A stretch of 64,000 nucleotides of DNA from Blautia sp. An249 (lineage in GTDB: Bacteria; Bacillota; Clostridia; Lachnospirales; Lachnospiraceae). Positions 41,150 to 60,664 of the stretch are shown here, piece by piece. Position 1 is the first letter of the stretch. Each line of letters opens with the position of its first letter. The position numbers and the translations under genes are program-made. The DNA lies in contig NZ_NFJL01000006.1 in assembly GCF_002159835.1 (NCBI RefSeq), positions 1 through 64,000 on the forward strand. Direction: 5' to 3'. Under the pieces are notes generated by a model. That model ran no database searches, was not told the DNA's origin, and saw only the letters and a list, made by a program, of their open reading frames with translations.

Positions 41150-41215
41150 TATTCGATTTTAGAATAGCAGTTAAGCCGAAACGGAATTGTTATAAATAAC
41201 TGAAAACTGTAAAAT
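41150..41215 (+). promoter_or_regulatory. LysR-type operator and promoter of the TAXI operon
   Basis: TATTC-GATTTTA-GAATA (41150-41166) is centred 29 bases before the -35 box TTGTTA (41187-41192), which has a 17-base spacer to TAAAAT (41210-41215). The same palindrome and distance occur before the UGSC operon (50955-50971). The expected start near 41222 puts the operator at about -64, the classic LysR activator position. Confidence 0.8.
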
Positions 41216-41358
41216 TGTAATTGAAAATAATGCAATATTAAATAAAACTTCCTATTAATGACAGAATGTATAAAGGATTTTTAGCAGATTGTCCGGGAAG
41301 CAGTATCAGAAGTAGGAACCTAAAGAACGAGTATAAAAAAGAAAAAGGAGAACGAGCT

Positions 41359-44552: not shown

Positions 44553-45863
44553 GTGAATTTTACAGAGTTATATCAGAAGAAACGATGCTCTCCGGTGCAG
44601 GCCGTATCCGGGGTTACGTCAGGGCAGAGAGTTCTGCTTTGCAGTGAACCGGTAACGTTAGTGGAAGCTTTATATCAGAAAAGGGAAAGCTTTCACCCCC
44701 TTTATCTCTATTCCATGATGGGCTTTGCCAATCCAGGAATCTATGAACGTCTGTATGGAGAAGAAGGGATTGGACATTTTCAGGTATCTGTCAGTTATAT
44801 GACCCGGCCGGAAGCCCAGGCCATCAGGCGGGGCGTCCGGGTGGACCACCTCCTGACCCATTTCGGATATATCGAAGAGATGTTTCAGGAACAGATTCGC
44901 CCCGATTATGTTTTCTGCCATGTTTCCCCCATGGATGAGGAAGGCTATTTCTATATGGGTATCTGCCCCGGCCCCGGGCGGGTATCCATTGACCGGGGCG
45001 CAAAGGTAATTTTACAGGTAAATGAGAGGATTCCCCGGATTTCCACCTCATTTCAGCGGATTCATATCCGTGAAGTGGAAGCTCTCTGTGAGAGTTCTAC
45101 GGTTCTTCCGGAGATTCCGGATATGGAACCTACGGATTTAGAAGTAAAGATGGCGCGGCACATTGTGGAACGGATCGAAGATGGTTCTGTTATTCAGCTG
45201 GGCGTAGGGGGAGTCCCAAGCGCTGTGGGAAACTTTCTGATGGATCACCGGCATCTGGGAATCCATACGGAAGTATTTACCGATGTGATGCGGGTTTTGA
45301 TGGAAAAAGGGGTTGTGGACAACAGTCAGAAGCAGATCTGTCCGGGAAAATCGGTGGCCGGTTTTATCCAGGGAACCAGGGAGACCTACCGGTTTGTGGA
45401 CGAAAATCCGGAGATCTTCTTTGACCGGCTTTCCTGGGTGAACAATCCGGATGTCATTGGTCAGAATGAGAAGATGATTTCCATTAATTCCTGTATGGGT
45501 GTGGATCTGCGGGGGCAGGTCTGTTCGGAATGTATTGGTCTGGATACGTATGCGGGAAGCGGAGGTCAGCTCGACTTTGTCCGGGGCGTCCGGAGATCCA
45601 AAGGGGGGAAATCCTTCATCGCTATGCGTTCTTCTCTGGAGAAGAAGGACGGGACGCGGATTTCAAAAATTACTCTGACCCTGCCGCCGGGTTCTGCGGT
45701 GACCACACCCAGAAACGACGTTCACTATATTGTAACGGAATACGGTATCGCCCAGATGAGAAACCGCACACTAAAAGAAAAGGCGGAGGCGCTGATACAG
45801 ATTGCTCACCCACAGTTTCGGGAAGAATTAACTTATCAGGCCCAAAAAGCGGGGATTCTCTGA
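44553..45863 (+). CDS. Acetyl-CoA hydrolase / CoA-transferase family (Cat1/Cat2-like)
   Basis: GTG 44553 follows AAAGGAGCGG and gives 436 aa. The family's blocks are GVTSGQRVLLCSEPVTLVEAL, IQLGVGGVPSAVG, and the C-terminal GSGGQLDFVRGVRRSKGGK before GSAVTTPRNDVHYIVTEYG. These enzymes move CoA between acetyl-, butyryl- or 4-hydroxybutyryl-CoA and a free acid. The gene lies between the importer and the 2-oxoacid oxidoreductase, so it may activate the imported acid or recycle acetyl-CoA formed by the oxidoreductase. The exact donor cannot be read. Confidence 0.88.
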   Translation: MNFTELYQKKRCSPVQAVSGVTSGQRVLLCSEPVTLVEALYQKRESFHPLYLYSMMGFANPGIYERLYGEEGIGHFQVSVSYMTRPEAQAIRRGVRVDHLLTHFGYIEEMFQEQIRPDYVFCHVSPMDEEGYFYMGICPGPGRVSIDRGAKVILQVNERIPRISTSFQRIHIREVEALCESSTVLPEIPDMEPTDLEVKMARHIVERIEDGSVIQLGVGGVPSAVGNFLMDHRHLGIHTEVFTDVMRVLMEKGVVDNSQKQICPGKSVAGFIQGTRETYRFVDENPEIFFDRLSWVNNPDVIGQNEKMISINSCMGVDLRGQVCSECIGLDTYAGSGGQLDFVRGVRRSKGGKSFIAMRSSLEKKDGTRISKITLTLPPGSAVTTPRNDVHYIVTEYGIAQMRNRTLKEKAEALIQIAHPQFREELTYQAQKAGIL

Positions 45864-46112: not shown

Positions 46113-47192
46113 ATGTCACGAAAATTTATTGACGGGAATGTGGCCATGGCAGAAGCTGCAGTGGCAGCAGGCTGCCGTCTGTTTGCCGGATTTCCCATTA
46201 CCCCTCAAAGTCCCATGCCGGAGTATTTATCCGACCGGCTGCCCCAGGTGGGAGGCAGTTTCATACAGGCAGAAAGTGAAGTGGTTTCCGCCAATATTTT
46301 ACTGGGCGCCAGTTACGGAGGTCTGCGGTGTATGACAAGTACTTCAGGACCCGGATTCTCCCTGATGGCAGAGGGAATCAGCTTCATTATCGGAAGTGAA
46401 GCTCCCTGTGTGCTTATTGACGTTGCCAGGCCAGGTCCGGGAATGGGCGGCATCGGGGGATGCAGCCAGGACTATCTTTATGCGGTAAAAGGACTGGGAG
46501 CCGGAGGCGGCAGAGCCTTTGTCATTTCTCCGTCTACCATACAGGAGGCGGTAGATGTGGTTTATGAAAGTTTTGATCTTGCAGATCAGTACCGGACGCC
46601 GGTGGTGGTTCTGACAGATAAACTTCTGGCGGCGACCACAGAAGCGGTGGAGCTTCCGCCCCTGCGGGATTTATCCACCCTCCCTGATAAATCTTCCTGG
46701 CTGATTACGAAAAGGGACAGTATGAAATTTGAAGATAAACGAATCTGCCAGTCCATGCTGCTTCCCGTTTCTGCCCAGGAAGAATTCTGTATAAAACTGG
46801 CAGAGAAATATCAGCAGTGGGAAGAAAAGGAAGTCCGCTGGGAAGAATTTCTGATGGAAGACGCCCAGGTGGTATTGTTTGCCTACGGATCCGTGGGAAG
46901 AATCGTCCGGGAGGCGGTACGGCAGCTTCGGGCCATGGGAATTCCGGCAGGACTGTTCCGTCCAATTACCCTGTTTCCTTTCCCTCAGAAACAGATTGAA
47001 AACTTACGCTATGAAAATCTGAAAAAAGCTGTCTGCGTGGAAATGGCTATTCCCGGGCAGATGCTGGAGGATGTCCAGCGCAGTGTGAAAGGAAAAATAG
47101 AAGTGGATTTCTATGGCCGCGGCGGCGGTATGCTGGTGACGCCTCAGGAGGTCGTGCAGTATGTGAAAGAACAGTGGGAAAGGGGCGTGTGA
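46113..47192 (+). CDS. 2-oxoacid:ferredoxin oxidoreductase alpha subunit
   Basis: The 359-aa subunit has GFPITPQSPMPEYLSDRLP, the acid-rich QAESEVVSANILLGASYGG, TSTSGPGFSLMAEG and VDVARPGPGMGGIGG-type blocks of KorA/VorB proteins. It forms the ThDP and CoA half-site with the beta subunit and turns a 2-oxoacid plus CoA into acyl-CoA and CO2 with reduced ferredoxin. Substrate choice (pyruvate, 2-oxoglutarate, branched or aryl 2-oxoacids) is not readable. Start at ATG 46145? no: ATG 46113 after AGGAGGAG is preferred. Confidence 0.92.
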   Translation: MSRKFIDGNVAMAEAAVAAGCRLFAGFPITPQSPMPEYLSDRLPQVGGSFIQAESEVVSANILLGASYGGLRCMTSTSGPGFSLMAEGISFIIGSEAPCVLIDVARPGPGMGGIGGCSQDYLYAVKGLGAGGGRAFVISPSTIQEAVDVVYESFDLADQYRTPVVVLTDKLLAATTEAVELPPLRDLSTLPDKSSWLITKRDSMKFEDKRICQSMLLPVSAQEEFCIKLAEKYQQWEEKEVRWEEFLMEDAQVVLFAYGSVGRIVREAVRQLRAMGIPAGLFRPITLFPFPQKQIENLRYENLKKAVCVEMAIPGQMLEDVQRSVKGKIEVDFYGRGGGMLVTPQEVVQYVKEQWERGV

Positions 47193-47194: not shown

Positions 47195-47932
47195 ATGGAA
47201 AAAGCAGTTTATCAGCGGTCAAAATTATATATGGGCGGTCATCCCCTGTGTTCAGGCTGTATGCACGGCTTAATCGGAAAACTGATTCTGGATACTCTGG
47301 AGGAATTAGAGATTGCACCAGAGAATACCACTTTGCTGTTTCCGCCGGGGTGCGGTCCTCAGCAGGATTTCTGCATAAATATTAACACGGTAATGGTAGG
47401 ACTGGGAAGATCGGCGGCTGTGGCCACGGGAATTAAAAGAGGAAATCCGGATCATTTTGTCCTTTGCTGGGACGGGGACGGGGCCGATGCAGCCATAGGA
47501 ATAGGAGATGTAATCCATGCGGCGGCACGAAAAGAAAATATTACTGTAATTATGGTAAATAACTCCCTGTTTGCCAATACGGGAGGACAGATGGCGCCTA
47601 CCACTTTACTGGGACAAAAGTCCACCACCTGTCCACAGGGAAGAAAGGAGGACGTGGAAGGCTATCCCATTAATCTGGCAGAAATCCTGGCTCAGGTAGA
47701 AGGGACCCGGTTCTCAGCCAGAATGGCAGTTTACGATCCAGCTCATGTGAGAAAGGCGAAGAAAGCTTTAAAAACAGCCTTCCGTCTGCAGGTGGAGAAG
47801 AAAGGGTTTGCCTTTGTGGAGTTTTTGTCCAACTGTCCCACCAACTGGCATATGACGCCGCTTAAGTCCATTGAACATATTAAGGAGATGTCGCAGCTTC
47901 AATATCCCATCGGTATTTTTAAAGGAGAATGA
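47195..47932 (+). CDS. 2-oxoacid:ferredoxin oxidoreductase beta subunit
   Basis: I take ATG 47195, after AAGGGG; a GTG at 47174 lies inside the alpha gene. The 245-aa subunit has HPLCSGCMHGLIGKLI, PPGCGPQQD and the ThDP-binding GDGDGADAAIGIGD ending in NNSLFANTGGQM. It binds ThDP and, with a CxxC-type Cys pair near residues 20-23, is likely to hold a cluster. It is read in the same operon and ends four bases inside the gamma gene. Confidence 0.92.
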   Translation: MEKAVYQRSKLYMGGHPLCSGCMHGLIGKLILDTLEELEIAPENTTLLFPPGCGPQQDFCININTVMVGLGRSAAVATGIKRGNPDHFVLCWDGDGADAAIGIGDVIHAAARKENITVIMVNNSLFANTGGQMAPTTLLGQKSTTCPQGRKEDVEGYPINLAEILAQVEGTRFSARMAVYDPAHVRKAKKALKTAFRLQVEKKGFAFVEFLSNCPTNWHMTPLKSIEHIKEMSQLQYPIGIFKGE

Positions 47933-47934
47933 GT

Positions 47935-48498
47935 ATGGAAACGAAAATTTTTTTAGGCGGTCTTGGAGGCCAGGGCGTGGTAATGGGAGGAAAACTGCTG
48001 GGTATGGCGGCAGTGAGGAAAGGCGGTTTTGCCACCTCCTATTCAGAATATGCCCCTGCCATGAGAAACGGATATACTTATACTACGTTGATTCTGTCGG
48101 AAAAAGAAGTAGGCGCCCAGGTAACTTCTTCTTATGACTGTATGGCATTTTTCGATGAGGATTCCTGCGTCACCCAAAGCCCGTATCTGAAAGAGAATGG
48201 CTGTTATCTGGTAAATACCAGTCTGGTAAAAACCATGCCTGATACAAAAAGAGGAAAACTGTATCAGATCCCTGCCTCGGAAATTGCGGATGAGCTGGGA
48301 AATCCCCGGTTTCTGAATGTAATTATGATGGGAGCCATTGTGGAGGCCAGTAACTGTCTGGAACCGGAAGAGGTGGAGGCAGCTATCCGGGAATCTTTCG
48401 GGAAGAAACCCCAGGTTGCTCTGGCCAACATTCAGGCATTTCAAAGGGGAAGAGAGACGGTTCGTTCGCAGAAAAACCAACAGGAGGGAGAAGAATGA
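47935..48498 (+). CDS. 2-oxoacid:ferredoxin oxidoreductase gamma subunit
   Basis: ATG 47935 follows AAAGGAG by seven bases, so I prefer it to ATG 47929; the product is 187 aa. The glycine-rich GGLGGQGVVMGGKLLGMAA at the N-terminus, then FATSYSEYAPAMRNGYTYTT, are the marks of KorC/VorA-type gamma subunits. It completes the four-part enzyme. Its stop overlaps the ATG of the next gene (ATGA), so the ketopantoate-reductase-like enzyme is coupled to it. Confidence 0.92.
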   Translation: METKIFLGGLGGQGVVMGGKLLGMAAVRKGGFATSYSEYAPAMRNGYTYTTLILSEKEVGAQVTSSYDCMAFFDEDSCVTQSPYLKENGCYLVNTSLVKTMPDTKRGKLYQIPASEIADELGNPRFLNVIMMGAIVEASNCLEPEEVEAAIRESFGKKPQVALANIQAFQRGRETVRSQKNQQEGEE

Positions 48499-49971: not shown

Positions 49972-50871
49972 GTGACATTTGAGCAGTTAGAATATTTTAT
50001 GTTAATCGAAAAGTATAAAAGTTTTTCCAGAGCGGCTGAGGAGAATTATCTTTCTCAGCCTACTTTGTCCAAACAGATCAAAGCCCTGGAAAAAGAGCTG
50101 GGAGTTGAACTGTTTGTACGTACTTCCAGAAGTATCCGCCTGACAGATGCCGGGCGGGAGTTCTCACAGTTTGTACATAAAGTCATGCAGGAATACTACA
50201 GGATTAAAACAACCCTGAGGGACTACGGGAAGGCGAAAAAGAAGCTGGTAATCTCCACCATTCCCGTGGCGCCCCGCTATGGCCTTCTGAAAGTAATCCG
50301 GGAGTTCTGTAAATTCTATGAAAATGTGGATGTGGAACTGGTGGAGCAGAATACGGATCTGGCTTTAAAAGCCCTGGAAAACGATACTTCCGATATGGCC
50401 TTTATCAGAAGCAAGTACATCCCCGACGGAGAGTACGGAGCCTATCCTCTGATTAAAGACGAGCTGGTTCTGGTAGTATCCAAGGATCATCCCTTTGCCC
50501 AGGAAAAAAGCATTTTTCTCAGAGACGCCCAGTATGAGCAGTTTATCTTTCTGGGGACCAATACGGGCCTTTACCGTATCTGTATGGACGAGTGCAGGAG
50601 AGCAGGCTTTATTCCGAAAGCCAGGGAGCGAAATGTGCGGGTGGAGACGCTGGAGGAACTGCTGATTGAAGAAAACTGCGCTTCTCTTCTGATGAACAGC
50701 GTGGCCAGCCGTCTTTCCCTGGATAAGCTGAAGATTGTGAGACTGAAAGAACATCCACAGATGGATATTTGTCTTGTTTTAAAGCTGGAACAACTGACGG
50801 ATTTAAAGAAAACGTTTATTGAATATGCAACAGATTATATGATGGACTATTATACGAAAGGAACTTTCTAG
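49972..50871 (+). CDS. LysR-family transcriptional activator of both operons
   Basis: GTG 49972 lies six bases past the lpdD-like gene, so the regulator is the last gene of the operon it probably controls. The 299-aa protein has an N-terminal winged HTH (FEQLEYFMLIEKYKSFSRAAEEN, then LSQPTLSKQIKALEKELGVELF) and a periplasmic-binding-like effector domain. The palindromes TATTC-N7-GAATA at 41150 and 50955 fit its box. The effector is probably a pathway acid. A hairpin (50881-50906) follows the stop. Confidence 0.92.
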   Translation: MTFEQLEYFMLIEKYKSFSRAAEENYLSQPTLSKQIKALEKELGVELFVRTSRSIRLTDAGREFSQFVHKVMQEYYRIKTTLRDYGKAKKKLVISTIPVAPRYGLLKVIREFCKFYENVDVELVEQNTDLALKALENDTSDMAFIRSKYIPDGEYGAYPLIKDELVLVVSKDHPFAQEKSIFLRDAQYEQFIFLGTNTGLYRICMDECRRAGFIPKARERNVRVETLEELLIEENCASLLMNSVASRLSLDKLKIVRLKEHPQMDICLVLKLEQLTDLKKTFIEYATDYMMDYYTKGTF

Positions 50872-50880
50872 GAAAGTGAA

Positions 50881-50906: not shown

Positions 50907-50951
50907 TTGTACACTGACGCTGATTTTTTTCTATATCACCATTACAAAATT

Positions 50952-51021
50952 ATCTATTCGATTTCGGAATAGATAGCCTTCCTTATTAGAATTGCATAGA
51001 AATAAAGTGTAATGATACTAT
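50952..51021 (+). promoter_or_regulatory. LysR-type operator and promoter of the UGSC operon
   Basis: ATCTATTC-N7-GAATAGAT (50952-50974) is a perfect 8-bp palindrome. Its centre is 29 bases before the -35 box TTGCAT (50992-50997), which has an 18-base spacer to TACTAT (51016-51021). The core TATTC-N7-GAATA and this distance match those before the TAXI operon. Confidence 0.8.
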
Positions 51022-51062
51022 TAAGTCAGATAATTTAAACCGACAAAAGGAAGGAGAGGCTT

Positions 51063-52766
51063 ATGGGAGAATATTTAAACCGCTTATTAGATCCAAGGGG
51101 GTATCAGGAAAGAGAGGTTATTCAGCTGGCCAAAAGAGTCAGTCTGGAAGAGCTGAGACAGGGGAAACTTCTGTTTTATAACAACACCAAACTGGACTTC
51201 TGCAACTATTATACAGTGTTTGACCGGATCAAAGAACGGCTGGAAGAACTGGGAATCACCAATTACGTGGAATATAAAGAAACTGTCCGTGGAAAAGATG
51301 CCCGGAAACTGGAGGAATATGCCCGGATGCTGGCACAGGAAAAACCTACGGCGGCCATTGTTGCTTTCGGGGATATGGGAACCTCTTCTTCTACTACCGT
51401 CTTAACTATTGCCCTGGAGAAACTGGGGATTCCCACTGTCTACATGACAGCGCCTCCGGGAACCGGGATTACAGAAGGCGTGGGAGTATACCGGGCAGGA
51501 CATCTCTGTATGTGCTCTGTGGATATTTACCAGGCCAGTACCGTGGAAGAAATTGCAGCGGAAGTGGACAGGCACTGGGATTACATTATTAAGTCCCTGA
51601 CCGTAAACGGAGAAGAACTGGAAGAGCTGGCGCACATTGATTTTAAAATGGATAAAACGGCTCCGGCAAAAGACGGATTCCTCCCCTATATGATAGAAAA
51701 AGATGAGGAAAGGGAAAAGGAACCGGGCGCTTATCTGGAAGAAATTAATGAATATTTTAATCAGGAACATATCAGCGACGGTCTGCCGATCATCCCTCCT
51801 ACCCGGCGGCGCTACGAGGCCATGCTGGAATATTGCCCCTTTGATGAGAATATGGTGCTGTGCGCCCCCAGCGGTCCCAGTGGAAAAACAGTCACCGTAA
51901 AAGATGTGGCAGTTGCCGCCGTTATGGCAGGCTGTAAGCCAAATGCCATGCCGGTTTTAATCGCAGCCTTTAAAGCTTTAAACAGTCCCCTTTACAATCT
52001 GAATCAGTCCGTAACCACATCCCATCCGGGAGGAAACATGGTTCTGGTTTCCGGCCCCATTGCCCAGGAAATCGGCATTTCCGGAAAACAGGGCTGCTTA
52101 GGGCCGGGATGGCCGGCAAATGCCACCATCGGCCGGGCGGTCAATCTGGTGATTATGAATGTTTTCCGTTCGGTTCCCGGTATCTGTGATCTGGACTGTA
52201 TTGCTTCTCAGGCAGAGTTTACTTACTGCTTTGCAGAAGAACCGGAGCTGGCACAGTGGAAGATGATCAACGAAGACCGTTTCGACTCAGAAACAACCAC
52301 CGTCTACGTGCTGAAAGCGGAGCCTCTCCATGACATCATTGATTTCCTCAGTCTGAACGGACATGACCTGCTGGATACCATTACGGCCTGCTGTACCACC
52401 TTAGGTTCCAACAATGCGTATATGCCGGGACCGCTGGTGGTCTGCCTGACGCCGGATCATGCCATGATGCTGAAAAAAGCAGGATATACCAAGGAAATGA
52501 TTCAGGAGCATATTCACCAGTACGTATACCATGAAGTACCTATGGTCAGAAACAGGGGCCTGGTTCCCGTAAGACCGAAAGAATGGGAGAACCGCCATCC
52601 TCTGCCTGTAACCCGTACGCCCAAAGATGTGGAAGTTGTGGTAATCGGAGGACGGGGCGGCCATTCCGGAGTCATCCTGCCATGGGCGCTGCACAGCGAA
52701 GGATGTGTGGAAGCAGTCCGCCTGCCGGATGGAACAGCAGCAAAAACCATAGAGGAATTTAAATAA
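51063..52766 (+). CDS. UGSC-type domain fused to its partner domain; redox residues lost
   Basis: The 567-aa protein opens with MGEYLNRLLDPRGYQ. Residues ~35-240 match the UGSC (seleno)protein type: KLLFYNNTKLDFCNYY, then AAIVAFGDMGTSSSTT, then LGIPTVYMTAPPGTG. The motif normally reads GD-U/C-GSC; here M105 replaces the Sec/Cys and S108 the Cys, so the thiol/selenol pair is gone. Residues ~250-567 form the larger partner domain (SDGLPIIPPTRRRYEAMLE, then GCLGPGWPANATIGRAVNL), which in other genomes is often separate. No UGA is seen at M105 (ATG). Function is unknown; as the first gene of the operon, it may be the pathway's key new enzyme. Confidence 0.7.
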   Translation: MGEYLNRLLDPRGYQEREVIQLAKRVSLEELRQGKLLFYNNTKLDFCNYYTVFDRIKERLEELGITNYVEYKETVRGKDARKLEEYARMLAQEKPTAAIVAFGDMGTSSSTTVLTIALEKLGIPTVYMTAPPGTGITEGVGVYRAGHLCMCSVDIYQASTVEEIAAEVDRHWDYIIKSLTVNGEELEELAHIDFKMDKTAPAKDGFLPYMIEKDEEREKEPGAYLEEINEYFNQEHISDGLPIIPPTRRRYEAMLEYCPFDENMVLCAPSGPSGKTVTVKDVAVAAVMAGCKPNAMPVLIAAFKALNSPLYNLNQSVTTSHPGGNMVLVSGPIAQEIGISGKQGCLGPGWPANATIGRAVNLVIMNVFRSVPGICDLDCIASQAEFTYCFAEEPELAQWKMINEDRFDSETTTVYVLKAEPLHDIIDFLSLNGHDLLDTITACCTTLGSNNAYMPGPLVVCLTPDHAMMLKKAGYTKEMIQEHIHQYVYHEVPMVRNRGLVPVRPKEWENRHPLPVTRTPKDVEVVVIGGRGGHSGVILPWALHSEGCVEAVRLPDGTAAKTIEEFK

Positions 52767-52800
52767 ATCTTATTCTGTACCACGGAAGGAAAGGAGTTTT

Positions 52801-54296
52801 ATGAGTTATACAACCGTTTATGATGTGATTGTGTGCGGCGGCGGTACCTCCGGCGTGGCAGCGGCCATTTCAGCCGCCAGAACCGGATCGAAGACGCTCC
52901 TGGTGGAGCGGACCGGGGTACTGGGCGGCCAGATGAGTCTTTCCGGACCTCCGGGTTTCGCATACGCCAGACTTTTTAATCCTCAGGGGAAAAGAGATAT
53001 TGGAGGAATTGTAGAAGAAACTTATCAGCGGCTGTACCGCAGCGGACACGCCCTTCCCCACCTGCGGTATCCCATCCGGGAAAAGGCCGGCTACGGATTT
53101 TCTTATGTGGATCCGGACTGGTGGGTGGATCTGATCTTCACCATGATGGAGGAAGAAGGGGTTCAGCTTCTGCTGGATTCCTTAGTGGTAGGGGTTACCA
53201 AAGAAGAAAATAAGGTTACAGGCATTGTGGTTGAAAATGCCAATGGGAGAAATGAGATTGCAGGTAGAGTGGTCATTGACTGTACCGGCGAGGGCTATGT
53301 GGCCATACAGGCAGGATGTGAAATAACAGTGTGCCAAGGGACGAAGTGCAGCCCCATACTTTGGCATTTACCGTGGACGGGGTGGACTGGGAACGGCTTT
53401 TACAGTACATCCGCACCCATCCGCAGCAGTTTTCCTTTAAGCAGTTAATCTTCCCTCTGGAAGATGCCAATACCAGAGAAGATGTGGAAGAGATGTACAG
53501 AAACTGTTACGACATTAAAGAACTGGGAGAGATCATGGGCTTTTATGAGCTTCGTGACATAGCTTTTAAAAACGGTGACTGGCATCCTTATTCCGGAGCA
53601 GGATTTTTCCTGACGCCTAAAGAGGGCGGACATATTCAGGCTCATTTCCAGCATTCCTCCCAGGTGGATCACGCAGTGGCGACCGACGCCTGGGATTTAA
53701 CCAGATGCAATATTGAGTGCCGGAAACAGAACCGGATTGCCTGGAGATTTTTCAAAAACTATGTGCCCGGTTTTGAAAACGCCTATATTACGAAAACCTG
53801 CACTGAGCTGAGACTGAGGGAAGGCCCCAGGATTGTGGGAGATTATATGCTGACCAGAGACGATGTTGCAGAGTGCAGACAGTTTGAAGATACCATCGGA
53901 AAATCGTCTTTCAAAGCAGGGGGCTACCATGTGGCTTCTATGGATACCTTAAATCATGTGGCCGTAGTGGGGAATGAAGACCGCAAGGACAATATCCAGT
54001 TTAAAAGCGATCTGGCCATTCCCAAAGACGGTGGGTCTTATGATATTCCGTATCGCTGTCTGGTGCCTCAGAAAGTGGAGAACCTGCTGGCAGCAGGAAA
54101 ATGTGTATCTACGGATCGGCCTGCTTATTTAAGGTACCTGCACCAGACCATGGTCACCGGACAGGCGGCCGGAACGGCGGCAGGATTATGCGTACAAAGA
54201 GGAATCACCCCCAGGGAGCTGGAAAAAGATGTGAAAGAGCTTCAGAAGCGGCTTCTTGACCAGGGAGCCATTCTCTTTGAATGCCCGGACAGGTAA
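52801..54296 (+). pseudogene. FAD-dependent oxidoreductase gene with one frameshift
   Basis: The first frame (from ATG 52801) has the dinucleotide motif VIVCGGGTSGVAAAISAARTG, then GVLGGQMSLSGPPGF, as in the FAD_oxidored family. Near 53325-53331 the frame changes: GTGTG precedes CCAAGG, and only loss of TG (or gain of one base) would continue the protein into DEVQPHTLAFTVDGVDWERL. From there the second frame runs to 54296, ending PYRCLVPQKVENLLAAGKC, then the FAD-fold tail. The joined protein is near 498 aa. A dinucleotide slip is likely; sequencing error or strain-level mutation cannot be told apart. Confidence 0.8.
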
Positions 54297-54311
54297 GAAA
54301 GGGGAAGAACC

Positions 54312-54911
54312 ATGGAGCAGAAGACAAAGAGGGAACGGGTTGTAATAGGTATCAGCGGCGCCAGCGGAATGGCCGTGGCCCATTACATTCTGAAAGTCTT
54401 AAGGGAAAAGCCGGAAATCGAGACTCATCTGGTGGTATCGGAAAGCGCCAGGCTGACCATACAGACGGAATTAAACAGCAGCTTACAGGAGTTGGAAGAC
54501 CTGGCAGATGTGGTTCATGATATTCATAAGATGAGCGCTTCCATTGCCAGCGGGTCTTTCCCGGTAAAGGGAATGATTGTAGTCCCCTGCAGCATGAAGA
54601 CAGCAGCAGGGATTGCAGGCGGCTATACGGACAACCTACTGTTAAGGGCTGCAGACTGCATGATAAAGGAGCGAAGAAGGCTGGTGCTGGTGGTAAGAGA
54701 GTGTCCTTTTAGTCCCATTCATCTAAGAAATCTGACCTTTCTGGCAGAATGCGGCGTGGATATTCTGCCCATGGTAATGACCTTCTATAACGGGCCTCAG
54801 ACCATTGAGGATATGGTGATACATATAGCTTCCAAAGCCCTGGAACGTCTGGGGATTGATTCGGGATCCTACAGGCGCTGGGGAGATACGATACAAGAGG
54901 GCTTGGCTTAG
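54312..54911 (+). CDS. ubiX: Flavin prenyltransferase (UbiX/Pad1 family)
   Basis: The 199-aa protein has the FMN-binding GISGASGMAVAHYIL, VVSESARLTIQTEL, the VVPCSMKTAAGIAGGYTDNLLLRAADC block and RRLVLVVRECPFSPIHLRN, all diagnostic of UbiX. It joins a dimethylallyl group to FMN to make the prenylated FMN needed by UbiD-type decarboxylases. The UbiD gene lies 1.2 kb downstream in the same operon, and an LpdD-like gene lies in the coregulated operon. GGGGAAG precedes the start at 54312. Confidence 0.95.
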   Translation: MEQKTKRERVVIGISGASGMAVAHYILKVLREKPEIETHLVVSESARLTIQTELNSSLQELEDLADVVHDIHKMSASIASGSFPVKGMIVVPCSMKTAAGIAGGYTDNLLLRAADCMIKERRRLVLVVRECPFSPIHLRNLTFLAECGVDILPMVMTFYNGPQTIEDMVIHIASKALERLGIDSGSYRRWGDTIQEGLA

Positions 54912-54929
54912 AAAGAAAGGAAGAAGGCA

Positions 54930-56087
54930 ATGAATTTACAGAGTTTTTCAGTAAAACAGGATATTCTGTTTGGCATAGGGGCAGTTGCCAAGCTGCCGGA
55001 GAAAATGAAAGAATTAAAAGGAAAGAAAGCCCTGTTGGTTTCTGATCCCGGTTTGATTGAAGCAGGAACCACAGGAAAAATTGAGAAGATCTTAAAGGAT
55101 GCGGGGATCGATTATGCGGTTTTCAGCCATATTGAGCCGGATCCGGGATGCTGGATTGTTCATGAGTGCCGGGATCGGATCATGGAGGAAAACTGCGATA
55201 TTTTAGTGGCCCTGGGAGGCGGAAGCGCCATGGACACGGCCAAAAGCGCGTCCATCATCGGATATACGGGAAAGAGGATTCATGATTACTGGGGCTATTA
55301 TAAACCCGTGGACAATGAGACAATTCCGGTAATTGCGATCCCCACCACAGCAGGAACAGGATCAGAAGTGACCAGAAACACGGTGATTACCGATGAAGAG
55401 CATTACAAAATGGTTATCTTAAACGATAAGATGCTGCCGGAAGTGGCTCTTCTGGATCCGGAGATGATTATGACCTGTCCCGTATCTGTAGCAGCCGCCA
55501 GCGGGCTGGATGCTATGATTCATGCTGTAGAGTGTTATTTAAGCGATTTGGCAACTCCCTTTTCCGATGCTGTGGCAGAAAAAGCCATGGAACTCATTGG
55601 CCCGGCTCTGCCCCGTTTTGTAGCAAACCGAAAGGACGTACAGGCAGCCAGTGATATGCTGATGGGAAGTACCCTGGCCGGAATCACCCTGTCTTTATGT
55701 CTGCCCACCCAGGCTCACGCCTTATCCCATCCTCTGACGGGATATTACGGGATTTCTCATGGTATGGCAAACGCCATGCTGTTCCCCACAACCATGGAAT
55801 TTAATGCCCTTGCAGATCGGGGAAAATATAAAAAGATTTATAATCTCCTTCGCACAGGACATCCCTATACAGAAGACTTCGAAACAGAAATGCTTATTGA
55901 CTATCTGAAGGAATTGAACAGAAAGCTGGGACTGCCGAAAAATTTAAGCGAGATGGGTGTGGATGAGTCTCATATGGAAGAGATGTTAAAGGACGCCCAG
56001 AGGACGAAGATCTGGGAACACTGTCCCAGGACAACCTCTGTAAAAGAGATGGAAATGCTGTATAAAAAAGCCCTTTACCGGGAGTGA
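54930..56087 (+). CDS. Iron-dependent alcohol dehydrogenase
   Basis: The 385-aa enzyme has the NAD(P) motif ALGGGSAMDTAKSAS, TTAGTGSEVTRNTVI, and the metal-binding histidines in DAMIHAVECYLSD, QAHALSHPLTGYYGISHGMANAM. This is the group III alcohol dehydrogenase family (PF00465). It would oxidise an alcohol to an aldehyde, or the reverse, alongside the ALDH encoded 2.5 kb downstream. The start at 54930 follows GGAAG. Its last bases overlap the UbiD start region, consistent with one transcript. Confidence 0.93.
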   Translation: MNLQSFSVKQDILFGIGAVAKLPEKMKELKGKKALLVSDPGLIEAGTTGKIEKILKDAGIDYAVFSHIEPDPGCWIVHECRDRIMEENCDILVALGGGSAMDTAKSASIIGYTGKRIHDYWGYYKPVDNETIPVIAIPTTAGTGSEVTRNTVITDEEHYKMVILNDKMLPEVALLDPEMIMTCPVSVAAASGLDAMIHAVECYLSDLATPFSDAVAEKAMELIGPALPRFVANRKDVQAASDMLMGSTLAGITLSLCLPTQAHALSHPLTGYYGISHGMANAMLFPTTMEFNALADRGKYKKIYNLLRTGHPYTEDFETEMLIDYLKELNRKLGLPKNLSEMGVDESHMEEMLKDAQRTKIWEHCPRTTSVKEMEMLYKKALYRE

Positions 56088-56092
56088 CGCCT

Positions 56093-57565
56093 ATGAAAAA
56101 AATAGAAGATTTGCGTTCTGCTATAGAAGTATTAAAGACTGTGCCGGGACAATACCAGGAGACGTATGTTCCGGCAGAACCCCATGCAGAGATTTCCGGA
56201 ATCTATCGGTATGTGGGCGCCGGCGGTACGGTAAAAAGACCCACTAAAACAGGCCCGGCCCTGCTGTTTCATAACGTAAAAGGACATGAAGATGCGAAAG
56301 TGCTGATTGGCCTGCTGGCTTCCAGAGAACGGGTGGCTCTTCTTTTGCAGGATCGGCCGGAGCATCTGGGATTTTTATTAAAAGAAGCGGTACAAAACCC
56401 GATACCGCCTGTACTGACAGATTCCGGGGACGCCCCCTGTCATCAGGTGGTGCACTATGCCTGGGAAGAAGGATTTGACATCCGCAGACTGATTCCGGCG
56501 CCGACCAATACCCCGGAAGACGCAGGCCCCTACATTACCATGGGGATGTGCTATGCCTCTGATGTGGAGACCAAAGAGTCGGATATTACCATTCATCGTC
56601 TGTGTCTCCAGGATAAAGACTTAATTTCCATGTATTTCGTACCGGGAGCCAGACACCTTGGGGCATTCCGGGAGAAGGCGGAAGCATTGGGCAAACCCCT
56701 GCCCATTTCCATCAGCATCGGTGTGGATCCGGCAATCGAAATCGCCTCCTGTTTCGAGCCGCCCACAACCCCTATGGGATACAATGAACTGGGAGTGGCA
56801 GGGGCTATCCGCAAAGAAGGAGTAAAGCTGACTGACTGCCTTACCATAGAGGAAAAATGCATTGCCAATGCAGAGTATGTGATTGAAGGGGAACTGCTTC
56901 CCAACACCTATGTGCGGGAAGATCAGAATACCAATACGGGTAAAGCCATGCCGGAATTTCCCGGCTATACAGGAGCTGCCAATCCCAAGGTGCCCCTGAT
57001 TAAAGTAAAGGCAGTAACCCACCGGAAAAATCCCATTATGCAGACCTGCATCGGCCCCAGTGAAGAGCATGTAAATATGGCCGGAATCCCCACGGAAGCC
57101 AGTATTATTCAGATGGTGGAACGAGCCATGCCGGGAAGGCTGAAAAACGTCTACTGCCATTCTTCCGGAGGAGGAAAATATATGGCCATTCTTCAGTTTG
57201 AGAAGAAATCACCAAGCGATGAAGGAAGACAAAGGCAGGCGGCGCTTCTGGCTTTTTCTGCTTTTTCCGAATTAAAGCATATTATTTTAGTGGATGAAGA
57301 TGTGGATCCCTTTGATACCAATGATGTATTATTTGCCTTAAATACCCGTTACCAGGGGGATGTGGATACGATTTTTATTCCGGGCGTGCGCTGTCACCCC
57401 CTGGATCCTTCCCAGAGAACGTATTACAATCCTTGTCTTCGAGATCAGGGGATTTCCTGTAAGACTATCTTTGACTGTACCGTTCCCTATGAACTAAAAG
57501 ACAAGTTTATCCGTTCCCGGTTTTTAGAACTGGATCCCACCCACTGGGTACCGGAGAAAGGATAA
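56093..57565 (+). CDS. UbiD-family prenylated-FMN decarboxylase
   Basis: I take ATG 56093, after GGGAG; GTG 56084 is an alternative. The 490-aa enzyme has AGPYITMGMCYASD, HRLCLQDKDLISMYFVPG with the catalytic arginine region, SISIGVDPAIEIASCF, GYNELGVAGAIRKEGV and PNAEYVIEGELLPNTY with the ExxxE residues that act with the cofactor. It decarboxylates (or carboxylates) unsaturated or aromatic acids. UbiX supplies the cofactor, and the LpdD-like protein may assist. Aromatic hydroxy acids are a possible substrate class, but the gene alone does not tell which. Confidence 0.93.
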   Translation: MKKIEDLRSAIEVLKTVPGQYQETYVPAEPHAEISGIYRYVGAGGTVKRPTKTGPALLFHNVKGHEDAKVLIGLLASRERVALLLQDRPEHLGFLLKEAVQNPIPPVLTDSGDAPCHQVVHYAWEEGFDIRRLIPAPTNTPEDAGPYITMGMCYASDVETKESDITIHRLCLQDKDLISMYFVPGARHLGAFREKAEALGKPLPISISIGVDPAIEIASCFEPPTTPMGYNELGVAGAIRKEGVKLTDCLTIEEKCIANAEYVIEGELLPNTYVREDQNTNTGKAMPEFPGYTGAANPKVPLIKVKAVTHRKNPIMQTCIGPSEEHVNMAGIPTEASIIQMVERAMPGRLKNVYCHSSGGGKYMAILQFEKKSPSDEGRQRQAALLAFSAFSELKHIILVDEDVDPFDTNDVLFALNTRYQGDVDTIFIPGVRCHPLDPSQRTYYNPCLRDQGISCKTIFDCTVPYELKDKFIRSRFLELDPTHWVPEKG

Positions 57566-57568
57566 GAG

Positions 57569-58534
57569 ATGACGAGAAAAGATAATGTAAAGCTGGTGAT
57601 GGAGCACAAAAAACCTTTATGGACGCCCAATCTGTTTACAGATATTGATATGGCTCTTCAGTCAGCGGTTATGGAACGGTATGAAGGCCGTGAGACAGGT
57701 AAAGATGAATTCGGAGTAACTTATCAGTACAACGAAGAAGCCAGAGGTCCCGTGCAGGTTCCGGGGGACCGGGTGGTAAAGGATATTGAGAACTGGAGAG
57801 AGTATGTGACCTTTCCCGATGTGGAAAACAGGGACTGGGAAGCTGCCGCAGCCAGAGATACGGCAGGCTGGGATCGGGAGAACAAATTCACCATTGTCCA
57901 GATGTTTAACGGAATGTTTGAGCGTTCCCATCTTCTGATGGGATATGAAGATACCCTGTGCGCGCTGCTGACAGATCCGGAGATTATGGAAGAATTTTAT
58001 ACGGAATTTGTGGACTACCGGATCTCAATGATACGGAAGATTGCGCAGTATTATAAGCCGGATGCCATTATGATCTTCGATGATTACGCGGCTAAGGATG
58101 CGCTGATGATGTCTGCGGAGACCTGGCGGAAGATTTTTAAGAAGCAGCTGAAACGTCTGATTGATGCGGCCCATGACTGCGGAATGTACTATATTCTTCA
58201 TTGCTGCGGGTATCTCAGGCCTCTTCTGGAGGATTTTATTGAGATTGGAGCGGACGCCGTTCATCCGGTACAGGGAGAAAATAATCCCCAGGAGCTGAAA
58301 GCAAAGTATGGAGATCAGATTTGTTTCTGCGGATGCTACAACAATATCCGTATCCTGGATCGGGAGGGAGTTACAGAAGAAGAAATCAAAGAGGAGGTTC
58401 GCCATATCATGGAGGATATTGCCCCCGGCGGCGGATTCATTGCCTGGAGTTCCTTCTTCTGCCAGAAGCCAGAGCTTTACCGCCGGGAGATTCAAAAATA
58501 CATAGACAAGGAGAAACAGGATATACACACTTAA
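57569..58534 (+). CDS. Uroporphyrinogen decarboxylase-domain protein (methyltransferase-like)
   Basis: The 321-aa protein has the URO-D fold: VQMFNGMFERSHLLMGYED, a DAIMIFDDYAAKDALMMS block and the Zn-type residues in LHCCGYL and FCGCYNN. Such proteins include MtaA-like and O-demethylase methyltransferases that pass methyl groups to corrinoid proteins, as well as members of unknown function. No corrinoid protein gene is present in the window. Placed right after UbiD (3 bases apart), it may act on the same aromatic or methoxylated compound, or have a new role. GAGAAAGGA precedes ATG 57569. Confidence 0.8.
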   Translation: MTRKDNVKLVMEHKKPLWTPNLFTDIDMALQSAVMERYEGRETGKDEFGVTYQYNEEARGPVQVPGDRVVKDIENWREYVTFPDVENRDWEAAAARDTAGWDRENKFTIVQMFNGMFERSHLLMGYEDTLCALLTDPEIMEEFYTEFVDYRISMIRKIAQYYKPDAIMIFDDYAAKDALMMSAETWRKIFKKQLKRLIDAAHDCGMYYILHCCGYLRPLLEDFIEIGADAVHPVQGENNPQELKAKYGDQICFCGCYNNIRILDREGVTEEEIKEEVRHIMEDIAPGGGFIAWSSFFCQKPELYRREIQKYIDKEKQDIHT

Positions 58535-58549
58535 AGAGAGGGAAAGTGT

Positions 58550-60055
58550 ATGAAAATGTTGATAAACGGAAGGAAAACCGAAAGCAGAAGTGGAAAACTC
58601 ATCCCCGTAACCAACCCGGTAACAGGAGAGGTGCTGGATACCGTTTTCCAGGCAGGGGAAGAGGAGATGGAAGAAGCTCTGGAGGCATCTGTCCATGGCT
58701 TCCGGCGGTGGAGGGCCGTTCCTTTAAAGGAAAAAGAGAAAATCTTTCAGAAGTTTTATCAGCTTCTGGAAGAACCGGAGAAAAAGAGAGAGATTCTTTC
58801 TGTTTTAATAAAAGAGAGCGGGAGCAGCATCCGCAACGGGCTCTTTCAGTACCAGGGGATGCCGGAGATTTTTAAGGGGTATCTGGAATCGGCCAAAAGG
58901 TATCTTGGTTCTGTACTGGTTCCGGGGACAGAAGCCGGCCATGACGGAAAGACGGAGAAAGATTTACAGATGGTCATTTATGAGCCGGTGGGAACCGTAT
59001 TTTCCATTGTACCCTTTAATGCGCCTCTTATGCTGTTTGCCTATAAAGTGGCTCCGGCTCTGGCTGCAGGCTGTGCTGTCATTGTAAAGCCGCCCACCAG
59101 CAATCCTCTGGCCCTAATGAAGGTGGTGGAGCTTTTGTGGGAAGCCGGAATTCCCGGAGATGTGCTCCAGGTGGTGACAGGAAGCGGATCCGTTATTGGA
59201 GATCGGATGGTATCTGATAAGCGGATTCAGGCGGTATCCCTGACCGGAAGTACAGAAGTGGGACTTCATGTGGCACAGACCATGGCAAAGCGTCTGGCGC
59301 CCTGTGCACTGGAACTGGGCGGCAACGATCCATTTCTGGTATTGGAGGATGCGGATATAAAGGCTGCGGTACGGGATGCGGCATTCTGGCGGATGAATTC
59401 CGCCGGGCAGGTATGTATTGCACCTAAACGGTTCCTCGTGCATCGTTCGGTAAAAGATGATTTTATCCAGGGCGTTCTCTCCTTTGTAAAAACCATCGAA
59501 ATGGGATTTGATTTGGATGTGGATGCAGAGCTGGAAAAATATCTTGCCACTGATTTTTCCAGATTTGCCGGAGATCACATGGTGATGAACAGCCTAATCT
59601 CCGAAGAAGCAGCTATCCGGGTGGAAGAGCAGGTGAAAAAGACTCTGGAACAGGGAGCAAAACTGGCTGTTGGAGGAAAACGGCGGGGAAGTTTCTATGA
59701 GCCTACTGTTCTGACAGAGGTAACGAAAGACATGGATGTAATGAAGGATATGGAGATCTTCGGCCCGGTAATGCCCGTCTGTGTATTTGATACTATAGAA
59801 GAGGCCGTTGCCATTGCCAACCAGAGCAGCTTTGGGCTGTCCGGATGTGTTTTCACACGAGACTGGAAGAAGGGAATGGAGATTGCCGGAAAGATAGAAT
59901 CGGGAACTGTGGTGGTAAACGGGACGGGAACTTATCGGAATATGATGCAGCCCTTCGGCGGATGGAAGTTAAGCGGACAGGGAAAAGAGGGATTCTTTAC
60001 TTTGGGAGAAGTAATGGAATCAAAAAATATTGTACTGAAAGGATTTCTGGAATAA
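58550..60055 (+). CDS. NAD(P)-dependent aldehyde dehydrogenase
   Basis: The 501-aa ALDH has FNAPLMLFAYKVAPALAAGC, the catalytic glutamate in CALELGGNDPFLVLEDAD, the nucleophilic cysteine in NSAGQVCIAPKRFLVH, and the C-terminal EIFGPVMPVCVFD and MQPFGGWKLSGQGKEG motifs. It oxidises an aldehyde to an acid, or to a thioester in the CoA-acylating subfamily; the choice is not readable. It ends the operon at a strong terminator. The Fe-ADH upstream could supply its aldehyde. GAGGGAAAGTGT precedes the ATG. Confidence 0.93.
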   Translation: MKMLINGRKTESRSGKLIPVTNPVTGEVLDTVFQAGEEEMEEALEASVHGFRRWRAVPLKEKEKIFQKFYQLLEEPEKKREILSVLIKESGSSIRNGLFQYQGMPEIFKGYLESAKRYLGSVLVPGTEAGHDGKTEKDLQMVIYEPVGTVFSIVPFNAPLMLFAYKVAPALAAGCAVIVKPPTSNPLALMKVVELLWEAGIPGDVLQVVTGSGSVIGDRMVSDKRIQAVSLTGSTEVGLHVAQTMAKRLAPCALELGGNDPFLVLEDADIKAAVRDAAFWRMNSAGQVCIAPKRFLVHRSVKDDFIQGVLSFVKTIEMGFDLDVDAELEKYLATDFSRFAGDHMVMNSLISEEAAIRVEEQVKKTLEQGAKLAVGGKRRGSFYEPTVLTEVTKDMDVMKDMEIFGPVMPVCVFDTIEEAVAIANQSSFGLSGCVFTRDWKKGMEIAGKIESGTVVVNGTGTYRNMMQPFGGWKLSGQGKEGFFTLGEVMESKNIVLKGFLE

Positions 60056-60080
60056 GAGTTCTGAAAGCCCCTCATATATA

Positions 60081-60121
60081 AAAAATAAGGTTTTTGCAAT
60101 TCCTGCAAAAACCTTATTTTT
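60081..60121. terminator. Strong bidirectional terminator ending the UbiD operon
   Basis: AAAAATAAGGTTTTTGCA (60081-60098) and its exact complement (60104-60121) form an 18-bp stem. It ends the plus-strand operon and the convergent DUF3100-type genes. Confidence 0.9.
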
Positions 60122-60161: not shown

Positions 60162-60650
60162 TTAGATGATTCCCTGTGCGCTTAAGATAATCTGAGCGAT
60201 CAGGGCAGATCCCACATAAGTACCAATCATAACGAAGATAGCGACAACGATACCTCTCCATCCGATTTTCTTGAATTCCAGCCAGTCTTTACCCATGGAT
60301 ACACCGGCGTAAGCCAGTACAGGAGTAACGGAAGGAAGCAGGCCGATTTTATTTACCTGTTCCGCCACATAAGCTCCGGTGGGGCTGTAAGGCATACCCA
60401 GTATAATACCGATAAAGGTGATATAAATAATCGTCGGAATTTTCGGGAAAACGGCATTTAACAGGGTGCTTACAATCGCAATTGCGAAAAGAATTAACAT
60501 TCCGGGAAGTCCGTCCAGGATGGAAACGAAGGTATCCGGATTTCCGTCGGTTATAGTATTAATGGTATTTCCGATTAAGCTGATTACAGCAGAGATTGCC
60601 AGAATTAGGACGAACTCTGCTACTTTGTCCATTGTAAGTTTTTTCTCCAT
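60162..60650 (-). CDS. Small membrane protein, partner of DUF3100 protein
   Basis: The 162-aa protein has four to five hydrophobic segments (FVLILAISAVISLIG, GMLILFAIAIVSTLL, GIVVAIFVMIGTYVG). A loop TPVLAYAGVSMGKDWLEFKKIGW lies between. It starts 15 bases after the DUF3100 gene and looks like the second half of the same transport system, with the same phase and AGGAGG-type site. The two genes could be one gene in other genomes. It ends close to the terminator at 60081. Confidence 0.7.
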   Translation of the reverse strand: MEKKLTMDKVAEFVLILAISAVISLIGNTINTITDGNPDTFVSILDGLPGMLILFAIAIVSTLLNAVFPKIPTIIYITFIGIILGMPYSPTGAYVAEQVNKIGLLPSVTPVLAYAGVSMGKDWLEFKKIGWRGIVVAIFVMIGTYVGSALIAQIILSAQGII

Positions 60651-60664
60651 ACTGATTCCTCCTG

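What the first reader, a model, noticed from the sequence alone, without database searches (positions are those of the whole stretch)
50952..60121. LysR-controlled prenylated-FMN decarboxylase operon with a redox-dead UGSC fusion
A seven-gene operon joins a UGSC/partner-domain fusion, FAD oxidoreductase, UbiX, Fe-ADH, UbiD, URO-D-type protein and ALDH. I know of no described pathway with this set. The first operon under the same operator adds a TAXI importer, CoA-transferase, 2-oxoacid:ferredoxin oxidoreductase and an LpdD-like protein. Together they form a full route: uptake of a carboxylate, decarboxylation on prenylated FMN, alcohol/aldehyde steps, and CoA and ferredoxin chemistry. The substrate is unknown.
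Basis: partly seen in the sequence, partly recalled or inferred. Interest (0 to 1): 0.85.

Follow-up and report, generated by a model that had tools for sequence, protein, structure and literature searches.

The report
Aromatic-acid regulon with unknown core enzyme
A gut-type bacterium carries a rare set of co-regulated genes that probably takes up and decarboxylates a plant-type dihydroxybenzoic acid, built around a widespread pair of enzymes whose own reaction is unknown.

Summary
Two operons (41.2-50.9 and 51.1-60.1 kb) share a TATTC-N7-GAATA box; its 19-nt form has two places in the 3.9 Mb genome at up to one mismatch, and the box stands again before both operons in Lactonifactor longoviformis. 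The UbiD is not a blank: it is 58% identical to the protocatechuate decarboxylase AroY and keeps five activity-critical residues, so with UbiX and the LpdD-like protein it very likely decarboxylates 3,4-dihydroxybenzoate-type acids. The single-route idea is only partly right. In 32 related loci the constant part is the UGSC fusion plus FAD protein (30 of 32); UbiD is in 6, and the TAXI/oxidoreductase operon was found in 2 of 7 genomes searched. The fusion's N-domain is a distant, indirectly shown relative of the selenocysteine domain of glycine reductase GrdB, with Met at the selenocysteine position (35 of 35 sequences); its C-domain has no clear fold match. The pair's reaction is unknown. Best reading: a horizontally acquired catechol-acid catabolic regulon around an uncharacterised enzyme pair.

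The parts
41150..41166 (.). LysR-type box TATTCGATTTTAGAATA before operon 1
   Evidence: same box type before the orthologous TAXI gene in Lactonifactor, L023:14535
41266..42516 (+). TAXI-type TRAP solute-binding protein
   Evidence: PF16868; TIGR02122 69.5 bits, below its cut-off 84.35
42555..44534 (+). Fused TRAP permease
   Evidence: PF06808, TIGR02123 above cut-off
44553..45863 (+). CoA-transferase
   Evidence: PF13336; TIGR03948 butyryl-CoA:acetate type only 271.9 of 674.8 bits
45871..46101 (+).
   Evidence: sequence read by eye; no family search run on it
46113..47192 (+). 2-oxoacid:ferredoxin oxidoreductase alpha (VorB subfamily)
   Evidence: NF005507 408.3 of 399 bits
47174..47932 (+). 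2-oxoacid:ferredoxin oxidoreductase beta (TPP)
   Evidence: PF02775; TIGR02177 below cut-off
47929..48498 (+). 2-oxoacid:ferredoxin oxidoreductase gamma
   Evidence: PF01558
48495..49466 (+). Ketopantoate-reductase-family dehydrogenase
   Evidence: PF02558, PF08546; TIGR00745
49538..49966 (+). LpdD-like protein, probable third subunit of the UbiD decarboxylase
   Evidence: PF21758; homologues follow UbiD-UbiX in 5 of 6 congener loci
49972..50871 (+). LysR-type regulator
   Evidence: PF00126, PF03466
50879..50908 (+). Hairpin after the LysR gene, probable end of operon 1
   Evidence: -28.7 kcal/mol, z -6.6
50955..50971 (.). LysR-type box TATTCGATTTCGGAATA before operon 2
   Evidence: identical in L028
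51063..52766 (+). UGSC fusion: N-domain about 1-215 (motif MGTS at 105-108, no Sec/Cys), C-domain about 216-567 without a clear fold match
52801..54296 (+). FAD oxidoreductase PF12831, frameshifted near 53,330 in this assembly (ORFs 52801-53448 and 53331-54296)
54312..54911 (+). UbiX flavin prenyltransferase
   Evidence: TIGR00421 and NF004685 above cut-off
54930..56087 (+). Iron-containing alcohol dehydrogenase
   Evidence: PF00465, PF25137; best PDB matches are methanol dehydrogenases and lactaldehyde reductase
56093..57565 (+). UbiD decarboxylase of AroY (3,4-dihydroxybenzoate) type
57569..58534 (+). URO-D superfamily protein with HxC pair (H211, C213)
   Evidence: PF01208
58550..60055 (+). 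Aldehyde dehydrogenase
   Evidence: PF00171
60081..60121 (+). Terminator-like hairpin
   Evidence: -21 kcal/mol, z -7.7

Best explanation
An accessory, probably horizontally acquired, LysR-controlled catabolic regulon for a 3,4-dihydroxybenzoate-type (catechol) aromatic acid. SHOWN by sequence: two operons with one shared regulator box; a UbiX/UbiD/LpdD-like set whose UbiD keeps the AroY site; a near-constant neighbour pair, UGSC fusion plus FAD protein. INFERRED: operon 1 imports an acid through the TAXI-TRAP system and, where the acid carries a 2-hydroxy or 2-oxo side chain, shortens it (dehydrogenase, 2-oxoacid:ferredoxin oxidoreductase, CoA-transferase) to a dihydroxybenzoate; UbiX makes prenylated FMN, and UbiD with the LpdD-like subunit removes CO2 to give a catechol-type phenol. 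The FAD protein and the Sec-less UGSC fusion do a committed, still unknown step on the ring compound or its acid: the FAD protein moves the hydride, and the fusion, having lost the chalcogen, binds substrate and does non-redox chemistry (hydration, elimination or C-C hydrolysis). Fe-ADH and ALDH handle aldehyde/alcohol products, and the URO-D protein handles methyl groups or a one-carbon unit. The steps other than the decarboxylation are weakly supported.
For: UbiD: 284 of 487 alignment columns identical (58%) to AroY 5ny5, 655 bits. Four residues of AroY's putative catechol-binding motif (R188, H327, K363, H436) and Glu289, whose exchange abolished activity (PMC5656893, passages), are R187, H326, K362, H435, E288 here and kept in 7 of 7 fusion-linked UbiDs. 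LpdD-like homologues follow UbiD-UbiX in 5 of 6 congener loci. Shared box: 2 in the window, 0.12 expected, 19-nt form at two places in the genome at up to 1 mismatch; in Lactonifactor before the fusion, a URO-D gene and the TAXI gene, 0.02 and 0.01 expected in the two stretches. FAD partner in 30 of 32 fusion loci; the other two (L031, L054) are cut by a contig end. An uptake system in 22 of 32. The UbiD label needs 5 changes on the fusion tree, at least 4 forced by well-supported branches: repeated joining or loss. Fusion in 1 of 64 genomes of the genus yet 72-91% identical across loci titled as Lachnospiraceae and other Clostridia and, one MAG each, Acidobacteria, Chloroflexi and Treponema: fits horizontal spread. 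Sporobacter termitidis, which has a fusion locus (L049), is described as growing exclusively on some methoxylated aromatics such as syringate and vanillate, with O-demethylation and ring cleavage (PMC4585845, passage).
Against: UbiD is not in the stretch held (up to 10 kb each side, some contigs shorter) of 26 of 32 fusion loci, Sporobacter's included, so the pair's substrate need not be a catechol acid; the UbiD label is not clearly clustered on the tree (39 of 500 shuffles as low). The TAXI/oxidoreductase operon was found in 2 of 7 genomes. Curated VdcB, VdcC and TIGR00148 cut-offs are not met. 25 of 32 fusion genes have no ATTC-N7-GAAT within 300 bp upstream (7 do, 0.64 expected; several of the 7 are close relatives). 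The FAD gene is frameshifted here. AroY's Arg181 could not be placed: that chain position is not Arg in the printed alignment. No ring-opening or ring-reducing enzyme is identified. The genome's three corrinoid-type matches lie outside both operons.
Confidence: 0.55

Rival explanations
1. The decarboxylase set is an ordinary stand-alone hydroxyarylic-acid decarboxylase (detoxification or acid-stress role) that happens to share a promoter with an unrelated UGSC-FAD biotransformation module; there is no single pathway.
For: In congeners the nearest UbiDs (63-70% identical, in 6 of 60 other genomes searched) sit with UbiX and an LpdD-like gene in 5 of 6 loci, mostly near a LysR gene, in genomes without the fusion. 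UbiD is in 6 of 32 fusion loci.
Against: In window, L028 and L059 UbiD lies inside one run of genes with fusion, FAD, Fe-ADH, URO-D and ALDH in the same order; the tree forces at least 4 separate changes of UbiD association with the fusion.
Confidence: 0.25
2. Overlaps with the best reading. The UGSC-FAD pair is a one- or two-step biotransformation (for example a reductive or dehydrogenative change of an imported carboxylate or cyclitol, possibly as electron sink), reused with many uptake systems; UbiD only processes one of the products.
For: TRAP loci (10 of 32) and TAXI-type loci (3 of 32) carry a transporter and LysR-type genes with the fusion, and none of these 13 has Fe-ADH or ALDH in the stretch held; of 9 sugar-type ABC loci, 6 have both Fe-ADH and ALDH. 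The N-domain is related, indirectly, to the selenocysteine domain of GrdB, the substrate-binding subunit of a reductive deamination (PMC13188914, passages).
Against: The chalcogen residues of GrdB chemistry are gone in 35 of 35.
Confidence: 0.4
3. A methoxy-aromatic O-demethylation cluster, with the URO-D protein as methyltransferase and the rest cleaning up the demethylated acid.
For: Sporobacter grows on methoxylated aromatics (PMC4585845, passage); the URO-D protein keeps an HxC pair; a corrinoid protein lies in one fusion locus, L114, and corrinoid and pterin-binding proteins lie about 30 kb downstream of operon 2 in this genome.
Against: No corrinoid-type match in either operon; URO-D is in 9 of 32 fusion loci; the MtaA cut-off is missed by far (43.7 of 400 bits).
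Confidence: 0.2

Closest known systems
AroY / VdcBCD-type non-oxidative hydroxyarylic acid decarboxylase (UbiX + UbiD + LpdD/VdcD-like)
   Same: Three components present; UbiD 58% identical to AroY with five activity-critical residues kept.
   Different: Split over two operons, with the LpdD-like gene beside LysR in the other operon; below the curated VdcB and VdcC cut-offs; embedded with UGSC, FAD, Fe-ADH, URO-D and ALDH.
UGSC family (seleno)protein, PF24696 / NF041046, and its 'Unknown_1' fusion in GOS data (PMC2398784, passages)
   Same: The fusion matches PF24696 at 35.1 bits (cut-off 25), and its N-domain the Sec/Cys-type profile at 98% probability. A UGSC fusion is already on record from ocean metagenomes; I did not compare that partner's sequence.
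   Different: No Sec or Cys: MGTS in 35 of 35. A highly conserved lineage (72-91%) with an FAD partner in 30 of 32 loci.
Glycine/betaine reductase selenoprotein GrdB (PF07355)
   Same: The Sec/Cys-type UGSC profile aligns to the Sec site of GrdB, 94% probability, E 1.5e-7.
   Different: About 100 columns are shared; no Sec or Cys here; the window lineage's N-domain compared directly gave 8%; none of the operon genes was named as a GrdA-, GrdC- or GrdE-type protein by Pfam.
MtaA/CmuA-type URO-D methyltransferases
   Same: PF01208 above cut-off; HxC pair.
   Different: Far below the MtaA cut-off; no corrinoid partner in the operons.

Membership tests
AroY/VdcBCD-type decarboxylase | UbiD fold domains (N, Rift, C) | tested here: met
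   PF20695, PF01977, PF20696 all above cut-off; TIGR00148 is not (212.9 of 244.85 bits)
AroY/VdcBCD-type decarboxylase | Flavin prenyltransferase partner UbiX | tested here: met
   TIGR00421 209 of 108.9, NF004685 234.9 of 188 bits
AroY/VdcBCD-type decarboxylase | Small LpdD/VdcD-like subunit | tested here: met
PF21758 117.8 of 27 bits; homologues next to UbiD-UbiX in 5 of 6 congener loci.
AroY/VdcBCD-type decarboxylase | Catechol-acid residues R188, H327, K363, H436, E289 (AroY numbers) | tested here: met
   Arg181 could not be placed
AroY/VdcBCD-type decarboxylase | Curated VdcC (NF041204) and VdcB (NF041206) cut-offs | tested here: not met
   450.2 of 650 and 241.2 of 290 bits: works like it, not filed as VdcBCD itself
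AroY/VdcBCD-type decarboxylase | Decarboxylation of a 3,4-dihydroxybenzoate | not testable with these tools
   needs an enzyme assay
UGSC family | Pfam PF24696 gathering score | tested here: met
   35.1 of 25 bits
UGSC family | U/C-G-S-C motif | tested here: not met
   MGTS in 35 of 35; NF041046 27 of 125 bits
GrdB (PF07355) | Match to the family model | tested here: not met
   not among the fusion's hits at E 0.01; no PF07355 match in the genome
GrdB (PF07355) | Sec/Cys at the UxxC site | tested here: not met
   Met at the Sec column, Ser at the Cys column
GrdB (PF07355) | Homology of the Sec-bearing domain | tested here: inconclusive
   via Sec/Cys-type UGSC 94%, E 1.5e-7; whole fusion with distant members 81.8%, E 1.1e-5; window lineage's N-domain alone 8%; control C-domain 0.2%
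URO-D methyltransferase (MtaA/CmuA) | URO-D domain | tested here: met
   59.2 of 23.9 bits
URO-D methyltransferase (MtaA/CmuA) | MtaA equivalog score | tested here: not met
   43.7 of 400 bits
URO-D methyltransferase (MtaA/CmuA) | Corrinoid partner in the operon | tested here: not met
   PF02607 only at C55:90.6-92.2 kb and on C1
Fe-S fumarase or cyclic-amide-hydrolase ('Toblerone') fold for the C-domain | Fold match | tested here: inconclusive
   Foldseek 7xky E 2.9e-4 but TM 0.27; 5hy4 E 0.018; best VIA Z 6.3 over 92 residues, a chorismate mutase

The most novel reading that the evidence does not exclude
The UGSC fusion and its FAD partner are a new two-component enzyme of anaerobic aromatic or cyclic-acid breakdown: a domain related to the glycine-reductase selenoprotein that has shed its selenocysteine, fused to a domain of unknown fold, and spread between phyla as a cassette that repeatedly recruits different uptake systems and, several times separately, an AroY-type decarboxylase.
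Probability: 0.35. Interest if true: 0.8.

Novelty: new variant of a known kind. Interest (0 to 1): 0.55.

Why it matters
Anaerobic handling of catechol-type acids by gut and termite-gut bacteria is, to my knowledge, poorly mapped. The cluster gives a testable substrate class for one regulon, and points to a near-constant, phylum-crossing enzyme pair of unknown reaction with named organisms to work on (Lactonifactor longoviformis, Sporobacter termitidis, Schaedlerella arabinosiphila). [quoted passage not shown] this host genome has no SelA match.

Tried and rejected
Considered and set aside. (a) 'UbiD is the centre of the system': rejected, 6 of 32 loci. (b) 'The two operons always travel together': rejected, 2 of 7 genomes. 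(c) A programmed frameshift in the FAD gene: not pursued, since the relatives' FAD frames that are not cut by a contig end are open over 476-512 aa and one base is missing here against L028. (d) Fold of the C-domain: Foldseek and VIA-align gave only weak hits; this is no evidence that the fold is new. N-domain hits were common alpha/beta folds, best Z 10.0 over 131 residues. (e) No PDB sequence match for the fusion at E 1, a PHROG match at E 0.18 only, no relative in viral contigs. (f) PDB matches of the FAD protein cover mainly its start. (g) Transcription signals by consensus scan were no better than shuffles (12 against 11.9 promoter-like, 9 against 11.1 terminator-like). (h) Literature: searches for UGSC, Lactonifactor with FAD oxidoreductase (none), Sporobacter and demethylation, protocatechuate decarboxylase and gut, AroY, Lactonifactor, gene cluster, catechol, gallate decarboxylase and Lachnospiraceae, GrdB with UGSC, and UbiD, LpdD, TRAP, FAD, operon (none): the listings shown, which are capped, gave no title describing this gene set. 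Only PMC13188914, PMC2398784, PMC4585845, PMC5656893 and PMC9312934 were opened, and only passages of them were read. Subscription literature was not searched.


Full report
WHAT IS THERE. The seven genes described lie at 51063-60055 on the + strand, with spacers of -4 to +34 nt apart from the 118-nt overlap of the two FAD frames. The FAD gene is split by a one-base frameshift near 53,330: the two frames match positions 1-160 and 168-416 of PF12831, the frames in L028 and L059 are open, and there is no second copy in the genome at E 1e-8. Operon 1 (41266-50871) codes for a TAXI-TRAP importer, CoA-transferase, a 2-oxoacid:ferredoxin oxidoreductase whose alpha subunit is of the VorB subfamily, a ketopantoate-reductase-type dehydrogenase, an LpdD-like protein and LysR. 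A hairpin follows LysR (50879-50908) and another ends operon 2 (60081-60121).

SHARED OPERATOR. TATTC-N7-GAATA stands at 41150 and 50955, the only two in the window (0.12 expected; 1 of 100 shuffles reached 2). The 19-nt form CTATTCGATTTNNGAATAG has three matches at up to 2 mismatches in 3.94 Mb: these two (0 and 1 mismatch) and one with 2 on another contig. In L028 it is identical to the window's. Among 32 fusion genes (the window and 31 of the 32 loci; L055 starts inside the gene), 7 have ATTC-N7-GAAT within 300 bp upstream (0.64 expected) and 25 do not; several of the 7 are close relatives. This supports one regulator for both operons in two genomes; it does not show the ligand.

THE DECARBOXYLASE. 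The only PF01977 match of the genome gives 655 bits and 284 of 487 identical columns to AroY, 3,4-dihydroxybenzoate decarboxylase 5ny5. The AroY paper (PMC5656893, passages) gives Arg188, His327, Lys363 and His436 as the putative catechol-binding motif and Glu289 as a likely catalytic acid, with loss of activity on exchange. All five are present and are kept in 7 of 7 fusion-linked UbiDs. Arg181 of that paper could not be placed. UbiX is a clear family member. In congeners the related UbiD sits with UbiX and an LpdD-like gene in 5 of 6 loci. So the set works like an AroY/VdcBCD decarboxylase; the curated VdcB, VdcC and TIGR00148 cut-offs are not met, so I do not file it under those names.

THE CORE PAIR. 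A scan of one genome per species for the fusion gave 32 loci, 72-91% identical, titled as Lachnospiraceae, Oscillospiraceae, Clostridiales Family XIII and other Clostridia and, one MAG each, Treponema, Acidobacteria and Chloroflexi. By tblastn of each locus (up to 10 kb each side, many cut by contig ends), FAD is in 30 of 32, LysR-type genes in 20, an uptake system in 22 (TRAP 10, sugar-type ABC 9, TAXI 3), Fe-ADH 10, URO-D 9, ALDH 8, UbiD 6, UbiX 5, LpdD 4, aconitase-X 2. The two loci without FAD (L031, L054) are cut by a contig end. Gene order of operon 2 is the same in window, L028 and L059. On a tree of 36 rows the UbiD label needs 5 changes, at least 4 forced, but is not clearly clustered (39 of 500 shuffles as low). 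In the family, 11 of 397 genomes matched, of which four (own, G133, G136, G225) at 84% or more over nearly the full length and seven at 26-36% over parts of the C-domain. Within the genus the fusion is in 1 of 64 genomes. This is an accessory cassette.

WHAT THE FUSION IS. It matches PF24696 (35.1 of 25 bits), but the Sec/Cys motif reads MGTS in 35 of 35 close sequences. In 299 genomes of the phylum, 14 had a UGSC match; 15 of the 28 matches hold one in-frame TGA, and in the two read out in full, L073 and L087, it is the U of UGSC. The C-domain is shared by such proteins. A profile of 13 Sec/Cys-type domains aligns to the Sec site of four GrdB proteins at 94% (E 1.5e-7); the window lineage aligns to that profile at 98% (E 1.2e-13), and the fusion profile puts Met 105 opposite Sec. 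The window lineage's N-domain alone against GrdB gave only 8%, the C-domain control 0.2%. So the UGSC-GrdB link is good but indirect. The passages that I saw in PMC2398784, PMC9312934 and PMC13188914 list UGSC as a family of its own and do not state the link. The predicted models are good (pLDDT 84 whole, 87 C-domain); the C-domain has no clear fold match. The host genome has no SelA match.

THE OTHER OPERON. Orthologues of its permease and oxidoreductase (89-90%) were found in 2 of 7 genomes searched, window and Lactonifactor; G136, whose fusion is 91% identical, has none (only a 42% alpha-subunit paralogue), nor do G225, G777 (L059), G778 (L037) and G779 (L043), some of which are small or incomplete. 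Near L028 and L059 sugar-type ABC genes stand instead. So the operons look co-regulated where both exist, but operon 2 does not need operon 1.

HOW IT PROBABLY WORKS. Import of an aromatic acid; if it carries a 2-hydroxy/2-oxo side chain, conversion to the dihydroxybenzoate by dehydrogenase, oxidoreductase and CoA-transferase (inference from the gene set only); decarboxylation by UbiD (strong inference); an unknown step by FAD protein plus fusion (place in the route unknown); Fe-ADH and ALDH on aldehyde/alcohol products (inference). The URO-D role is open: H211 and C213 are kept in at least 90% of 13 rows, a Cys at position 298 in 4 of 13.

VERDICT. Observation confirmed with corrections; interpretation partly supported. 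The decarboxylase is a new member of a known kind; the Sec-less fusion lineage with its FAD partner is a new variant of a known selenoprotein family with unknown reaction, and is the part worth bench work.

Noticed in passing
window 53320-53340: One-base frameshift in the FAD gene of this assembly, open in L028 and L059; a strain defect or assembly error.
   Followed up: partly
   Followed up: no
L049, L057, L114: Aconitase-X-type large-subunit genes (named by eye) stand near the fusion-FAD pair in Sporobacter, a Clostridiales MAG and G676; in G676 a corrinoid protein follows.
   Followed up: no
G492 and G676 (L100, L104, L105, L114, L115): Genomes with 7 and 5 UGSC matches, 9 of the 12 with an in-frame TGA; L104 and L105 hold tandem pairs beside genes that look like short-chain dehydrogenases by eye.
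   Followed up: partly
L101, L106, L107, L108: UGSC fusions with lipoprotein- or signal-peptide-like starts by eye, L106 and L108 beside response-regulator-like genes: perhaps exported members of the family.
   Followed up: no
L021 (G136:C205), L024/L025 (Lactonifactor, G133:C26): Second copies of fusion-FAD with a different Fe-ADH (35-37% to the window's) and no UbiD nearby, in genomes that also have the UbiD-type locus.
   Followed up: no
G000:C55:88631-93079 (L127), outside the window: Corrinoid proteins, a pterin-binding protein, DUF2284 and a PucR-type regulator: a methyltransferase-like group on the same contig.
   Followed up: no
window 60162-62715: Minus-strand DUF3100 gene, a small gene with a sub-threshold LysO match, and an M20 peptidase gene next to the end of operon 2.
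   Followed up: no
window 35412-37900: GFO/IDH/MocA oxidoreductase and MOFRL/DUF4147 genes upstream of the regulon.
   Followed up: no
L019:16447-19333 (same contig as L028): Split transketolase halves plus a zinc-type dehydrogenase beside the closest relative of operon 2.
   Followed up: no
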